Positions 27,622 to 54,905 of a stretch of 64,000 bases of DNA are shown here, in pieces. The position numbers and the translations under genes were made by a program. Origin of the DNA: Ensifer oleiphilus (lineage in GTDB: Bacteria; Pseudomonadota; Alphaproteobacteria; Rhizobiales; Rhizobiaceae); contig NZ_JABWDU010000002.1 in the NCBI RefSeq assembly GCF_013371465.1, forward strand, positions 599,666 to 663,665, read 5' to 3'. Each line of letters opens with the position of its first letter. The stretch's first letter is position 1. The notes under the pieces were generated by a model that saw nothing but the letters and a program-made list of their open reading frames with translations, searched no databases and was not told the origin of the DNA.

Positions 27622-28194
27622 TCACATGCCTTGCGGGCCGCGGTTCATCGCGGCGATACCGGTGCGGCAGACTTCGATGAGGCCGAGCGGCTTCATGATG
27701 GCGATGAACTGTTCGATCTTGGCTGGCTTGCCGGTGATCTCGAACACGAAGTGATCGATGTTGGCGTCGATGACCGAGGCGCGGAAGGCGTCGGCGAGCC
27801 GCAGGGCCTCGACGCGCTGATCCCCCGAGCCGTGCACCTTGACCAGCGCCAGTTCGCGCTCGACCGGACGGTCATGACCGAGCGTGGCGGCGCGCACGGT
27901 CAGATCGACGACGCGGTGGACCGGAACCAGCCTTTCCAGCTGGTTCTTGATCTGGTCGAGCACGTGCGGCGTGCCGCGCGTGACGATGGTGATGCGCGAG
28001 AGATGCGCCGCATGTTCCGTTTCCGAAACGGTGAGGCTCTCGATGTTGTAGCCGCGGCCGGAGAACAGGCCGATGACCCGGGCAAGAACGCCCGGCTCAT
28101 TGTCGACGAGAACCGAAAGCGTGTGCGTTTCGGCGACTTCGGTTTCCTTGGCGATGAAATAGGCGGAACCGGTCGGTTGAAGGTGTGCGCTCAT
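27622..28194 (-). CDS. ilvH: Acetolactate synthase small (regulatory) subunit
   Basis: A 190-residue IlvH. The ACT domain begins ETHTLSVLVDNEPGVLARVIGLFSGRGYNIESLTVSETEHAAHLSRITIV, the site where valine binds for feedback control; the C-terminal domain (FVFEITGKPAKIEQFIAIMKPLGLIEVCRTGIAAMNRG) completes the family. The start at 28194 has AGGAAACAACAAA before it. It lies 22 bp after ilvI in one operon and shares its attenuator. Confidence 0.97.
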   Translation of the reverse strand: MSAHLQPTGSAYFIAKETEVAETHTLSVLVDNEPGVLARVIGLFSGRGYNIESLTVSETEHAAHLSRITIVTRGTPHVLDQIKNQLERLVPVHRVVDLTVRAATLGHDRPVERELALVKVHGSGDQRVEALRLADAFRASVIDANIDHFVFEITGKPAKIEQFIAIMKPLGLIEVCRTGIAAMNRGPQGM

Positions 28195-28216
28195 TTTGTT
28201 GTTTCCTGTCCCTATC

Positions 28217-29995
28217 TCAAACCAGCTGGCGGCCCTTGGCGTCGATCGCGTTGGCGACCGCTTCGTCCGTGGCCTCATCCGGCAACAGCATCTCGTTGTG
28301 CGCCTTGCCCGATGGGATCATCGGGAAGCAGTTGGCGAGATTGGCAACGCGGCAATCGAAGATAACAGGCGCTGGCGTGTCGATCATCTTGCGGATCGCA
28401 GCATCGAGTTCGCTCGGCTTGTCGCAGCGGATGCCGACGCCACCATAGGCTTCGGCCAGCTTGACGAAGTCGGGCATCGCCTCGGTGTAGGAGTGCGACA
28501 GGCGGTTGCCATGAAGCAGCTGCTGCCACTGGCGCACCATGCCCATGTACTGGTTGTTGAGGATGAAGATCTTGACCGGCAGGCCGTACTGGACGGCGCA
28601 GGACATTTCCTGGATGCACATCTGGATCGAGGCGTCGCCGGCGATATCGACGACGAGGCTGTTCGGATGCGCGACCTGGACGCCGATGGCGGCCGGGAAG
28701 CCGTAGCCCATGGTGCCGAGACCGCCCGAGGTCATCCAGCGGTTCGGCTGTTCGAAGCCGAAGAACTGGGCGGCCCACATCTGGTGCTGGCCAACTTCCG
28801 TGGTGATGTAGGTGTCGCGGCCCTTGCTCAGCTCGTAGAGGCGCTGGATCGCGTACTGCGGCATGATCACGTCGTCGTTGGCCGCATAGGCCAGCGAGTT
28901 GCGCGCGCGCCACTTGACGATGCCTTCCCACCAGTCTGCGAGCCGCGCCTTGTCGTCGGCCTTCTTGGCCGCGCGCCACAGGCGAACCATGTCTTCCAGA
29001 ACCGAGCCGACATCGCCGAGGATCGGTACGTCGACGCGCACGTTCTTGTTGATCGACGACGGATCGATGTCGATGTGGATCTTCTTGGAATTGGGTGAAA
29101 ACGCGTTGAGGCGGCCAGTGATGCGGTCGTCGAAGCGTGCACCGATGCAGACCATGACGTCGCAGTCATGCATCGCCATGTTGGCTTCGTATGTGCCGTG
29201 CATGCCCAGCATGCCGAGCCAGTTCTTTCCCGAAGCCGGATAGGCGCCGAGCCCCATCAGCGTCGAGGTGATCGGGAAGTCGGTGAGCTCGACCAGTTCG
29301 CGCAAGAGCGTCGAGGCCTGCGGGCCGGAATTGACGACGCCGCCACCGGAATAGATGATCGGACGGCGGGCCGTCTTCATCAGCTCGACGGCTTCTTCGA
29401 TCTTCTTCAGGTCGCCCTGCGTCTTCGGCTGGTAGCTCTTCTGCGCCGGAACGGCCGACGGCGGCGTGTAGGTGCCGGTCGCAAACTGCACGTCCTTTGG
29501 GATGTCGACGACGACAGGGCCCGGACGGCCGGATTGGGCGATGCGGAAGGCCTCATGGATGATGCGGGCGAGATCGTTGACGTCGCGAACCAGCCAGTTG
29601 TGCTTGGTGCACGGCCGGGTGATGCCGATCGTGTCGCATTCCTGGAAGGCGTCGGAGCCGATCAGCGAGGTCGGAACCTGGCCAGAGATGCAGACGAGCG
29701 GGATGGAATCCATCAGCGCATCCTGCAGCGGCGTGACGGCATTGGTCGCACCCGGACCGGAGGTGACCAGCATGACGCCGACCTTGCCGGTCGAGCGGGC
29801 ATAGCCTTCGGCCATGTGGCCGGCGCCCTGCTCATGGCGAACGAGGATGTGCTGGATATCCTCCTGCTGGTGGATTTCGTCGTAGATCGGAAGCACGGCG
29901 CCACCGGGATAGCCGAAGATATGCTCGACGCCATTGTCCTTCAGAGCCTGGAGAACGATCTCCGCGCCTGTCATCTGGTTCTCTGTACCGCTCAT
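28217..29995 (-). CDS. ilvI: Acetolactate synthase large (catalytic) subunit
   Basis: A 592-residue ThDP enzyme that makes acetolactate or acetohydroxybutyrate, the first common step of valine, leucine and isoleucine synthesis. Seen: GVEHIFGYPGGAVLPIYDEI, the catalytic Glu in LVRHEQGAGHMAEGYARSTGK, the central FAD-binding domain, and the ThDP segment VDIAGDASIQMC...ILNNQYMGMVRQWQ. The start at 29995 has GGAAG upstream. A frame running back to 30151 passes through the attenuator and is not the protein start. Preceded by leader peptide and terminator (see separate entries). Confidence 0.98.
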   Translation of the reverse strand: MSGTENQMTGAEIVLQALKDNGVEHIFGYPGGAVLPIYDEIHQQEDIQHILVRHEQGAGHMAEGYARSTGKVGVMLVTSGPGATNAVTPLQDALMDSIPLVCISGQVPTSLIGSDAFQECDTIGITRPCTKHNWLVRDVNDLARIIHEAFRIAQSGRPGPVVVDIPKDVQFATGTYTPPSAVPAQKSYQPKTQGDLKKIEEAVELMKTARRPIIYSGGGVVNSGPQASTLLRELVELTDFPITSTLMGLGAYPASGKNWLGMLGMHGTYEANMAMHDCDVMVCIGARFDDRITGRLNAFSPNSKKIHIDIDPSSINKNVRVDVPILGDVGSVLEDMVRLWRAAKKADDKARLADWWEGIVKWRARNSLAYAANDDVIMPQYAIQRLYELSKGRDTYITTEVGQHQMWAAQFFGFEQPNRWMTSGGLGTMGYGFPAAIGVQVAHPNSLVVDIAGDASIQMCIQEMSCAVQYGLPVKIFILNNQYMGMVRQWQQLLHGNRLSHSYTEAMPDFVKLAEAYGGVGIRCDKPSELDAAIRKMIDTPAPVIFDCRVANLANCFPMIPSGKAHNEMLLPDEATDEAVANAIDAKGRQLV

Positions 29996-30048
29996 TGACT
30001 TGCTTCCGTCCCTTTTCCCAGTTGGGTGCTTAGCTTGTTTGAAGGCAT

Positions 30049-30071
30049 AAAAAAAGGCCCCGTCAGGAGCC
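30049..30071 (-). terminator. ilvI attenuator (Rho-independent terminator)
   Basis: On the coding strand GGCTCC-TGAC-GGGGCC (one G-T pair) followed by seven T. It lies 34 bases after the leader-peptide stop and 54 bases before the ilvI ATG. Competing upstream pairings are present: GCGCATGGG with CCCATGCGC, and GGATGG with CCATCC across the leader stop codon. This is the layout of a translation-coupled transcription attenuator. Confidence 0.88.
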
Positions 30072-30104
30072 TCGTTTAGCGCATGGGTGGCTACCGCCGG
30101 ATGG

Positions 30105-30161
30105 TTACACCATCCTGCCCATGCGCCGTCCCACCACAAGAATAATCGCAAAATTTATCAT
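30105..30161 (-). CDS. Branched-chain leader peptide of the ilvI-ilvH operon
   Basis: An 18-residue ORF: MINFAIILVVGRRMGRMV. It carries two adjacent Ile, one Leu and two Val codons in a row (residues 6-10), exactly the control codons expected for sensing charged branched-chain tRNAs. Ribosome stalling there would leave the downstream terminator unformed. There is no ribosome-binding site; the predicted transcription start falls 0-2 bases from the ATG, so the mRNA would be leaderless, as described for the trpL leader of Sinorhizobium meliloti. Confidence 0.82.
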   Translation of the reverse strand: MINFAIILVVGRRMGRMV

Positions 30162-30169
30162 GGGACGAT

Positions 30170-30198
30170 TTGATAAACACAAAGCGCTAAAGCGTCAA
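30170..30198 (-). promoter_or_regulatory. Predicted sigma-70 promoter of ilvI-ilvH
   Basis: -35 TTGACG (30193-30198), 17-base spacer, -10 TATCAA (30170-30175). Transcription would start near 30161-30163, at the ATG of the leader peptide. Confidence 0.75.
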
Positions 30199-30588: not shown

Positions 30589-31806
30589 TCACTGCGCAGG
30601 TGCAGGCGCCAGCACGGCTTTTGGGAATGGCCTGAAGGTCAAGGCGATCAGGAAGGCGCCGATGCCGATGCCCCAGGCACCGATGTAGAGCCAGGCGTAG
30701 CTGGCGAAGGCGTCGTAGATCAGCCCACCGGCCAAGGGACCGGTCGCCATCCCGAGGCTCCCTGCCATGGCCGTGCCGCCGATCACCGTGCCCATCATCC
30801 GCTGCGGAAAATTCTCGCGCGCCAGCACCGCATAAAGCGGCATGATACCCGCATAGATGAAGCCGAACAGGGCCGCCACCGCATAGAACGCTCCCAGCCC
30901 GCTGGCGAAGACATAGGCAAGCGCGCCGAATGCCTGGATCAGCAGTCCCGATACCAGGATGCGCTTGGCTCCGAACCGGTCGCCGAGCAAGCCGAAGGCG
31001 ACGCGGCCACCCATGCCCGCGAGCCCTTCGACGCTATAGATTGACACGGCGGCTATCATCGGGATGCCGCAGGTGACTGCGTAACTCACCGTATGGAAGA
31101 TCGGACCCGAATGGGTGGCGCAGCAAAAGAAGTTCGTCAACAGAAGCACAATGAACTGCGGCGACCGGACGGCCTGGCCGACCGACATTGACGATTGCGG
31201 TCCGCTATCCCTGGCTGAAGCGATGTTTTCATGGTCTTGAACCGGCGGGCGGCGCACCAGCAGCGTCGTCGGTATCATCACGACGGCAACGATGACCGCG
31301 ATGATCTGCAGTGCCGTTCGCCAGTCGTAGAGGGAGACGAGCCATGCTGCCAGCGGCGACATGGTCATCGGCGCCATGCCCATGCCGGCAGAAACCAGCG
31401 ATACCGCCAGGCTGCGATGGGTATCGAACCAGCCAGTGACGCAGGCCATCATCGGCGCGAAGACCGCAGCCGTCGCTGCGCCGACGAGGAGGCCGAAGAC
31501 GATCTGAAACTCGATGAGCGATGTCGCCCGGCTCGCCAGAAACAGACTTCCGGCAAGAATGACCGATCCGATCAGCACGATCAGCCGTGCTCCCAACCGA
31601 TCCGACAGGCTGCCCCAGGCGATGCTTGCCACCGCCATGGAAACAAATCCAACCGTCATTGCGCTGGAGACGCCGGTGACCGACCAGCCGGTATCCTGAG
31701 AGATCGGCCGAAGAAACACTGGTAGAGAGAACATTGCGCCGATGGCGATACAGCCCAAAAGGCCGCCCGCCGCGACGATCACCCAGCGATATCGGGAATC
31801 ACGCAT
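30589..31806 (-). CDS. MFS permease, OxlT/monocarboxylate-like
   Basis: A 405-residue major-facilitator protein, about twelve membrane segments. Typical OFA/MCT-like start: YRWVIVAAGGLLGCIAIGAMFSLPVFLRPISQDTGWSVTGVSSAM, then motif A-like AWGSLSDRLGARLIVLIG and AFGLLGDRFGAKRILV in the second half. The start at 31806 has AGGAG 7 bases upstream; the frame is open for 70 more codons without homology. Likely substrate is a carboxylate, by family only. Confidence 0.87.
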   Translation of the reverse strand: MRDSRYRWVIVAAGGLLGCIAIGAMFSLPVFLRPISQDTGWSVTGVSSAMTVGFVSMAVASIAWGSLSDRLGARLIVLIGSVILAGSLFLASRATSLIEFQIVFGLLVGAATAAVFAPMMACVTGWFDTHRSLAVSLVSAGMGMAPMTMSPLAAWLVSLYDWRTALQIIAVIVAVVMIPTTLLVRRPPVQDHENIASARDSGPQSSMSVGQAVRSPQFIVLLLTNFFCCATHSGPIFHTVSYAVTCGIPMIAAVSIYSVEGLAGMGGRVAFGLLGDRFGAKRILVSGLLIQAFGALAYVFASGLGAFYAVAALFGFIYAGIMPLYAVLARENFPQRMMGTVIGGTAMAGSLGMATGPLAGGLIYDAFASYAWLYIGAWGIGIGAFLIALTFRPFPKAVLAPAPAQ

Positions 31807-32042
31807 GTGGTATCTCCTCGTACCTCGCCTCGACTGCTGTTGTTGGTGGCCCGGCTTGCGCCCGCCGCGCGCGGCACCTCCGCGCAAGGCGCTCACGTCG
31901 CCCCTCGGCACAAGGACGTTTCCGCGCCCGGACATCCGACTCGTCGCCTCACTTATTTTGCCCGAAGGAATTTCGGCAGGAAAGCCGGCGTGCGGCTCCG
32001 GGAGAGTGAACCCCGACAGCGCCACACGCCTGCTGCGCCCGG

Positions 32043-54389: not shown

Positions 54390-54562
54390 GATGCCTCCAC
54401 ATTGGATTACCCGAAAAACGGCAGCCTGTCCCGCATGCCCGGGCGGCCCGCCTGCAGCAGCCGGAGTTTTTCATGGCTGCCGATCAAGTCAAGCGTTTTG
54501 GAAAAGCAGCGATTTATCCGCACCCTCCCCTTTTCTTGGGCGCTGGAAAGACCTATATGACA

Positions 54563-54905
54563 GATGCCGTCTTAGGGCGGCTATGGCAATAAACGGGCGG
54601 TGAAATAAACCCATTGGACCCGGGGGCGGTACCCGGCGCCTCCACCAAAAACCGGTCGACACGTCGATGACCGGCTTTTGATGGGGGCGAAATAGGATCG
54701 ACAAGGGCGTAAAGATCGACTTTTTGCTCGGCATTGTACCACCGTTATCGGGCTAAACTTATAGTTGCAAACGACAACTATGCTGAAGCACGTCTCGCTG
54801 CCTAACGGCGGTGCGACACTTCAAATCAAGTCCTTCCGGGTAGCACCGTAAGGCGGGGTCCGAAGGCACCTGGCAACAGAAGCCTTCACCTTCTCCCCCG
54901 CTTCG
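54563..54905 (+). ncRNA. ssrA: Transfer-messenger RNA, circularly permuted (two-piece)
   Basis: Permuted alphaproteobacterial tmRNA. The acceptor piece comes first and ends with encoded CCA (54645-54647); its 7-base strand CGCCTCC pairs with GGGGGCG that begins the coding piece at 54683. Between them is a spacer hairpin (54648-54682) that is removed. The tag reading frame is at 54767-54805: ANDNYAEARLAA then TAA. The T-stem CCGGG/CCCGG closes a loop GGCGGTA that lacks the usual TTCRANY. The tag is added to stalled proteins and recognised by ClpXP. Both outer ends are approximate. Next gene is sspB. Confidence 0.93.

What the first reader, a model, noticed from the sequence alone, without database searches (positions are those of the whole stretch)
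30049..30198. Complete, apparently leaderless branched-chain attenuator upstream of ilvI-ilvH
Seen: promoter TTGACG-N17-TATCAA, an 18-codon leader with Ile-Ile-Leu-Val-Val, alternative stems across its stop codon, and a GC stem followed by seven T just before ilvI. The predicted transcript starts 0-2 bases from the leader ATG, and no ribosome-binding site exists. Established: the trp leader in Sinorhizobium meliloti is leaderless and yields a regulatory small RNA. Inference: ilvI uses the same strategy, and the terminated ~110-nt RNA may itself act in trans.
Basis: partly seen in the sequence, partly recalled or inferred. Interest (0 to 1): 0.72.

Follow-up and report, generated by a model that had tools for sequence, protein, structure and literature searches.

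The report
Leaderless ilvI attenuator, reused by pumps
Ahead of a branched-chain amino acid gene lies a known type of RNA switch whose peptide code seems to start at the RNA's first base; relatives have reused copies of it ahead of a drug-type pump or a spare copy of the enzyme, which could be an inducible defence.

Summary
Window 30198-30049 (-) has TTGACG-N17-TATCAA, an 18-codon leader (Ile-Ile-Leu-Val-Val) starting 8 nt after the -10, no Shine-Dalgarno (SD) sequence, a stem around the stop codon and a terminator with seven T before ilvI. The element is known: Rfam RF02502 (Atu_C8, filed as an sRNA); an ilvIH element is also listed for Sinorhizobium meliloti.

New here: (1) Related leaders come in two forms. 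Of 143, 74 have leaderless spacing, all with ATG; 37 have the -10 box 24-31 nt upstream, mostly with an SD; 32 are unclear. An IlvI tree needs 9-10 switches. (2) Stem 1:2 covaries strongly and leaders use rare codons; a swap test for the antiterminator was negative. (3) Second copies, all 54 examined with leaderless spacing and 43 with Val-Val-Val, precede a Bcr/CflA-type transporter (28 of 42 sampled in one genus, 12 of 12 in another family) or a diverged acetolactate synthase (13 of 42).

The attenuator and leaderless readings are supported by sequence; no 5' end was measured. Trans action of the RNA is untested. Inducible resistance to compounds that starve cells of branched-chain amino acids is a hypothesis.

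The parts
30193..30198 (-). -35 box TTGACG
   Evidence: conserved at near-fixed distance from the leader ATG in leaderless-spaced relatives
30170..30175 (-). -10 box TATCAA, 17-nt spacer, 8 nt before the ATG
30161..30161 (-). predicted transcription start = A of the leader ATG (inferred, not measured)
   Evidence: spacing; C at -1 carries 1.52 bits in 29 leaderless-spaced genera of the window's family, 0.75 in 12 of other families, 0.04 in 26 SD-led genera; the Rfam model starts at the G of this ATG
30105..30161 (-). leader ORF ilvL, MINFAIILVVGRRMGRMV + TAA
30132..30146 (-). control codons ATT ATT CTT GTG GTG (Ile-Ile-Leu-Val-Val)
   Evidence: conservation; codon bias
30118..30127 (-). 5' arm of the protector stem 1:2 (GGCGCATGGG)
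   Evidence: fold; covariation; coordinates worked out from those structures
30099..30115 (-). inner hairpin with the leader stop codon at its loop
   Evidence: not counted for covariation
30078..30087 (-). 3' arm of stem 1:2 (CCCATGCGCT)
30049..30073 (-). intrinsic terminator stem (30073-30054) and T run
30039..30159 (-). match to Rfam RF02502 Atu_C8, 121.8 bits
28217..29995 (-). ilvI, acetolactate synthase large subunit (592 aa)
   Evidence: PRK09107 1223.6 bits, cut-off 974
27622..28278 (-). frame of ilvH (regulatory subunit); start codon not determined here
   Evidence: name from my reading of the translation

Best explanation
The element is a ribosome-mediated transcription attenuator for ilvI(H), member of Rfam RF02502, whose leader peptide is translated from a transcript that begins at or within 1-2 nt of its own AUG. 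When charged Ile-, Leu- and Val-tRNA suffice, the ribosome runs to the stop codon inside stem 1:2, the terminator forms and a ~113-nt RNA is released. When it stalls on the Ile-Ile-Leu-Val-Val codons, it sits on or against the 5' arm of stem 1:2 and readthrough into ilvI is favoured. Shown by sequence comparison: promoter spacing, codon run, stem 1:2, terminator, linkage to ilvI. Inferred: transcription start, stalling, and the readthrough structure. In related genomes the same device occurs either leaderless or SD-led, and extra leaderless-spaced copies with valine runs stand before a Bcr/CflA-type transporter or a second acetolactate synthase.
For: RF02502 match; found in 240 of 247 genomes of the family and 161 of 297 of the order at E <= 0.001 (234 and 49 over the cut-off), 0 of 14 controls. 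Of the 7 family genomes without it, 5 also lack a TIGR00118 match over the cut-off. ilvI downstream in 140 of 144 copies. ILV run in the leaders. Rare-codon bias over 90 genera: Val GTA 36.0% in leaders against 2.6% in ilvI, Leu CTT 50.7% against 7.9%, Ile ATT 53.1% against 17.3%. The main 8-pair helix of stem 1:2 pairs in 94.9% of cells; over both stems 194 cells have changes on both sides against 70 shuffled. Leaderless: 74 of 143 leaders have a -10-to-start gap of 5-10 nt, mean SD energy -0.8 kcal/mol (6 of 74 at -4 or below) and ATG in 74 of 74; the other 69 have 16 GTG starts (Fisher p 3e-6 over loci, 0.002 over genera).
Against: No 5' end, ribosome stalling or regulation was measured here. 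The antiterminator is not supported by covariation: own region-2/region-3 pairing was no better, and in most windows worse, than permuted pairing; in the window the alternative pairing is weak and appears only in truncated, masked folds. Two family genomes (G458, G516) have ilvI but no RF02502 match. 32 of 143 leaders could not be assigned a promoter class, 6 leaderless-spaced leaders have SD-like pairing and 5 of 37 SD-led ones have weak pairing. Leader ORFs were picked partly for ILV content and ATG, so those traits are not fully independent of the choice. Genome-wide in G000 the leaderless promoter pattern is barely above its control (32 against 24).
Confidence: 0.87

Rival explanations
1. 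The transcript is primarily a trans-acting sRNA (as Rfam files Atu_C8), and its place before ilvI is incidental or secondary.
For: Rfam type 'Gene; sRNA'. Precedent: the S. meliloti trp attenuator RNA acts in trans (passages).
Against: The element precedes ilvI in 140 of 144 copies, keeps ILV codons with rare synonymous codons, and is absent from 5 family genomes that also lack an ilvI over the cut-off. None of this is needed for an sRNA alone.
Confidence: 0.07
2. The leader is not leaderless: a second promoter further upstream or a longer 5' end provides an ordinary or SD-independent leader.
For: The -10 box is not a textbook match, and a transcription start was not measured. SD-led relatives exist.
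Against: In leaderless-spaced relatives the best conserved upstream DNA is the -35, the -10 and CC before the ATG, and SD pairing is mostly missing. No GTG starts in 74 leaders.
Confidence: 0.1
3. Second-copy attenuators before the transporter are chance neighbours or decayed remnants of ilvI duplications rather than regulators of the pump.
For: In the same genus, 13 of 42 sampled second copies do precede an ilvI paralogue, so a duplicated attenuator-ilvI unit may be the ancestor. Second copies are rare in the family as a whole (9 of 247 genomes with two matches).
Against: The attenuator-transporter arrangement recurs in 28 of 42 copies in one genus, in 12 of 12 in another family and in one genome of another order. 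The C8-bearing transporters fall in one clade of 22 rows, 19 of them with C8. Leaders remain open, with leaderless spacing in 54 of 54 and Val-Val-Val in 43 of 54.
Confidence: 0.12

Closest known systems
Rfam RF02502 Atu_C8 (Rhizobiales sRNA)
   Same: The window element is a member: 121.8 bits against a gathering score of 50, over the full model.
   Different: Rfam files it as an sRNA gene; here it is the leader of ilvI in 140 of 144 copies. Its origin in Agrobacterium deep sequencing (Wilms 2012) is recalled; that paper is not held.
ilvIH element of S. meliloti (Valverde 2008, PMC2573895, citing Vitreschak 2004) and the ilvB leader peptide mentioned by Corbino 2005 (PMC1273637, same citation)
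   Same: Same gene and upstream position, 'ilvIH cis regulatory' (passages); an alphaproteobacterial ilvB leader peptide called previously described (passages).
   Different: Neither a leaderless start nor Atu_C8 appears in the passages seen; Vitreschak 2004 itself was not read.
S. meliloti trpL / rnTrpL (PMC7298713, PMC10117765)
   Same: Leaderless leader peptide in an attenuator of a rhizobium (passages).
   Different: Trp codons before trpE; trans action reported there, untested here.
Corynebacterium glutamicum ilvBNC attenuator (PMC11857589; Morbach 2000 seen only as a reference title in PMC4046766)
   Different: Actinobacteria; no homology tested.
Caulobacter ilvBN attenuator (PMC4117421, citing Tarleton 1994)
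   Same: Ile/Val leader and terminator before acetolactate synthase genes in an alphaproteobacterium (passages).
   Different: RF02502 rings in 0 of 14 control genomes; Caulobacter vibrioides is among the 14 named, which I take to be the same set.

Membership tests
Rfam RF02502 Atu_C8 | score over the curated gathering cut-off | tested here: met
   121.8 bits against 50, model 1-122
ribosome-mediated transcription attenuator | short leader ORF rich in codons of the regulated pathway | tested here: met
ribosome-mediated transcription attenuator | intrinsic terminator between leader ORF and gene | tested here: met
ribosome-mediated transcription attenuator | protector (1:2) stem overlapping the end of the leader ORF | tested here: met
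   main helix 94.9% of cells paired, 7 of its 8 pairs with changes on both sides
ribosome-mediated transcription attenuator | antiterminator that excludes the terminator | tested here: inconclusive
   alternative pairs exist in folds but swap tests are negative
ribosome-mediated transcription attenuator | expression responds to charged tRNA supply | not testable with these tools
   needs expression data
leaderless mRNA | transcript begins at the start codon | not testable with these tools
   predicted from spacing only
leaderless mRNA | no SD and AUG start | tested here: met
   window SD +0.9 kcal/mol and ATG; 74 of 74 ATG in the class, 6 of 74 with SD-like pairing
trans-acting attenuator RNA (rnTrpL-like) | regulates other transcripts in trans | not tested
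   no target search or data
Bcr/CflA efflux MFS (TIGR00710), for the second-copy payload in relatives | score over the curated cut-off of 200.9 bits | tested here: inconclusive
   L150 223.4 and L154 217.1 pass; L152 173.7 and L157 173.4 do not (four proteins given)

The most novel reading that the evidence does not exclude
A duplicated, valine-tuned and leaderless copy of the ilvI attenuator has become a portable sensor cassette with exchangeable payloads, a Bcr/CflA-type pump or a second acetolactate synthase. It would switch on resistance when a natural product starves the cell for branched-chain amino acids or blocks valyl-tRNA charging; a pump and a spare target enzyme are the two usual answers to such a toxin.
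Probability: 0.35. Interest if true: 0.8.

Novelty: new variant of a known kind. Interest (0 to 1): 0.56.

Why it matters
It ties an Rfam 'sRNA' family to its likely cis function. It gives a comparative test bed in which one attenuator moves between SD-led and leaderless initiation several times, so the effect of initiation mode on attenuation can be studied in natural pairs. The second copies, if they drive the pump or spare enzyme, would show amino-acid attenuators recruited as toxin sensors, testable in ordinary laboratory rhizobia.

Tried and rejected
Antiterminator covariation: swap and sliding-window permutation tests over 90 genus representatives gave no support; own pairs were weaker than permuted ones in most windows. 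A first terminator finder missed many stems because of a too strict end rule and was replaced (a hairpin before a T run in 143 of 143 leaders).

Other leaderless attenuators in the window's own genome: a promoter-ATG pattern gave 32 matches against 24 for the reversed control; of the 30 fetched, only the ilvI leader showed a short ORF plus a T run within 260 nt in my printout. trpL was not identified by this pattern.

Spread outside the order: model R1 found 4 of 289 genomes of the class: the window's own, two more of its order and one (G640) of another order, where the copy precedes the transporter. That search, like, used stricter filters that lose weak matches. Weak or by-eye cases: Kiloniellaceae, Minwuia and G426 leaders with Val runs before the same transporter group; R1 scores L165 at 18 bits (E 0.71) and G462's L243 at 19.9 bits (E 0.28), so homology to RF02502 is not shown for these. 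The Pseudomonas plasmid copy of the transporter (L306) has no R1 match. The second RF02502 match of G470 (29.6 bits) did not look like a leader.

Dropped rows: L135 (short, cut at a contig end) and L100 (no leader ORF within my limits) were left out of the 143-leader counts; 32 leaders stay 'unclear'. Alignment A2 holds 86 of the 90 genus representatives plus two second copies; L040, L076, L095 and L143 were left out.

No listed title or abstract start concerned an attenuator before this transporter (one search listed 2 of 3 papers, 12 of 27) or a leaderless ilvI leader in rhizobia (8 of 8, 4 of 4, 25 of 111, 12 of 20). The lists are partial and the library holds open papers only. Papers were seen as listings or passages; none was read whole.

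Full report
What is there. On the minus strand of 30198-30049 the window holds TTGACG, 17 nt, TATCAA, 8 nt, then an 18-codon ORF MINFAIILVVGRRMGRMV ending in TAA, a long stem with the stop codon at its inner loop, and a terminator with seven T, 53 nt before the ilvI start codon. The RNA folds at -48.3 kcal/mol, z -3.95. Rfam names it: RF02502 Atu_C8, 121.8 bits, filed as an sRNA, with the model starting at the G of the leader ATG. Valverde 2008 lists an 'ilvIH cis regulatory' element in S. meliloti citing Vitreschak 2004 (passages). So the attenuator itself is not new.

Names. Genomes behind G handles carry codes only. That is inference.

Conservation. RF02502 is found at E <= 0.001 in 161 of 297 genomes of the order (49 over the cut-off) and 240 of 247 of the family (234 over the cut-off), and in 0 of 14 control genomes (stricter filters). 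The seven family genomes without it have 1.2-2.0 Mb; five of them have no TIGR00118 match over the cut-off, and two (G458, G516) keep ilvI. I oriented 144 copies (one further locus, cut at a contig end, was dropped); 140 have ilvI within the fetched downstream DNA and four do not.

Leader coding and structure. In 143 of 144 copies a leader ORF was found; the picker favoured ILV content and ATG, but the alignment shows the run on its own, with variation mainly at third codon positions. Over 90 genera the leader uses rare codons where ilvI does not: Val GTA 36.0% against 2.6%, Leu CTT 50.7% against 7.9%, Leu CTG 7.2% against 51.2%, Ile ATT 53.1% against 17.3%. On an alignment of 88 copies the main 8-pair helix of stem 1:2 pairs in 94.9% of cells, with six pair types at one position; the outermost pair holds in only 55%. 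For the two stems together 194 cells show changes on both sides, against 70 in shuffles. The structure counted came from the window's fold. The expected antiterminator did not pass: pairing of each copy's own region around the stop codon with its own terminator arm was no better than with arms of other genera. How stalling prevents termination is therefore inferred from the classic model, not shown.

Leaderless or not. Scanning upstream DNA of 143 leaders gives two groups. In 74 a TTGAC promoter puts the -10 5-10 nt before the start codon (67 of them 7 or 8), with mean SD pairing -0.8 kcal/mol; 6 of 74 reach -4. In 37 the -10 lies 24-31 nt away, with mean SD pairing -5.7 kcal/mol; 32 of 37 reach -4. 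32 are unclear, 24 of them with SD pairing of -4 or stronger. Both forms occur within family f1 (55 leaderless-spaced, 9 SD-led) and within f6 and f16. By genus representative 41 of 90 are leaderless-spaced; shuffled upstream DNA gives 0.2 on average and at most 2. All 74 leaderless-spaced leaders start with ATG, whereas 16 of the other 69 start with GTG. C at -1 carries 1.52 bits in 29 leaderless-spaced genera of f1, 0.75 in 12 of other families and 0.04 in 26 SD-led genera, as expected next to a starting A. A quick tree of 94 IlvI proteins (SH-aLRT support only, 34 of 91 inner branches under 80) needs 9 changes between the two states, or 10 if unclear rows with strong SD are counted as SD-led. 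Leaderless against all the rest needs 11, of which well-supported branches force at least 5; shuffled labels need 30.2. The device has thus probably changed its mode of initiation repeatedly. This rests on promoter prediction, not on mapped ends.

Second copies. The four copies without ilvI downstream precede a transporter, and further second copies did the same. Two of four transporters tested pass TIGR00710, Bcr/CflA efflux MFS, and two score below it with that model still best. Of five plasmid or second-chromosome records fetched out of 14 hits, four carry it (R. gallicum, R. lusitanum 629, Phyllobacterium sp. A18/5-2, Rhizobium sp. BG4) and the Pseudomonas plasmid does not. In a quick tree of 101 transporters the 19 that I labelled as having an RF02502-like attenuator lie in one clade of 22 (support 98); one of them, in G462, scores only 19.9 bits.

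How common. In the family sample only 9 of 247 genomes have two matches, one of them doubtful. In genus g2, however, 118 of 148 genomes have two or more, and in family f6 14 of 101. From 40 genomes picked through the list of the 118 I fetched the 42 lower-scoring copies: 28 precede the Bcr/CflA-type transporter, 13 an acetolactate synthase paralogue 63-69% identical to the window's IlvI, and 1 another ORF that looks to me like a membrane transporter but matches no NCBIfam model at 1e-30. Of the 40 higher-scoring copies I checked 8, and all 8 precede ordinary ilvI (84-87% identical). In f6, 12 of 12 further second copies precede the transporter. All 54 of these second-copy leaders have leaderless spacing, though my picker rewarded it; 43 of 54 hold Val-Val-Val, against 0 of 8 ordinary ilvI leaders of the same genus and 14 of 139 ilvI-linked leaders overall. 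Against a clean picture, the 13 leaders before synthase paralogues have mean SD pairing of -3.6 kcal/mol. In these paralogues the loop around the MVRQW motif is altered or shortened in 9 of 13 by my reading.

Interpretation. The window element works like, and is by the features tested a member of, the leader-peptide attenuators, with a leaderless leader as described for S. meliloti trpL (passages) and C. glutamicum ilvBNC (passages). Trans action of its RNA was not tested. The second copies suggest that the device has been reused with a stronger valine signal to control a pump or a spare synthase. Under attenuation logic these would be expressed when valine or charged valyl-tRNA is short, which fits an answer to a toxin that causes such shortage better than export of surplus valine; that step is a hypothesis. 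A paper on M. tuberculosis seen in passages treats an attenuated ilvB1 leader together with the compound chlorflavonin. The window's own genome has a single copy and no relative of the transporter at E 1e-100, so this part concerns relatives, not the window.

Noticed in passing
L013, L014, L032, L033, L150-L152, L154-L157, L270, L303-L305, L307, L308-L361: Second attenuator copies, nearly all with leaderless spacing, before a Bcr/CflA-type MFS transporter or an acetolactate synthase paralogue; L322 has another ORF.
   Followed up: yes
L164, L165, L166, L247: Kiloniellaceae, Minwuia and genome G426: Val-run leader peptides and a terminator before the same transporter group; similarity to RF02502 is weak or absent.
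   Followed up: partly
L335-L338, L340-L343, L345, L346, L348, L350, L358 (13 loci): Acetolactate synthase paralogues whose loop around MVRQW is remodelled or shortened in 9 of 13.
   Followed up: partly
L148, L149: In two genomes of genus g184 the lower-scoring RF02502 copy precedes another ilvI-ilvH pair, followed by an ORF that looks like a LysE/RhtB exporter (names from my reading).
   Followed up: no
L036, L037: Two attenuator-ilvI copies about 2.7 kb apart in tandem in genomes G260 and G223.
   Followed up: no
L120, L134, L139, L142 (genomes G403, G528, G472, G302; genus g129, 1.0-1.5 Mb): Strongly reduced genomes keep the attenuator, and ilvI follows it in all four loci.
   Followed up: partly
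window 30589-32025 (-): ORF that looks like an MFS transporter of another kind, upstream of the attenuator and on the same strand (reading of the translation).
   Followed up: no
window 54527-54890 (+): Alphaproteobacterial tmRNA, RF01849, 309.3 bits.
   Followed up: no
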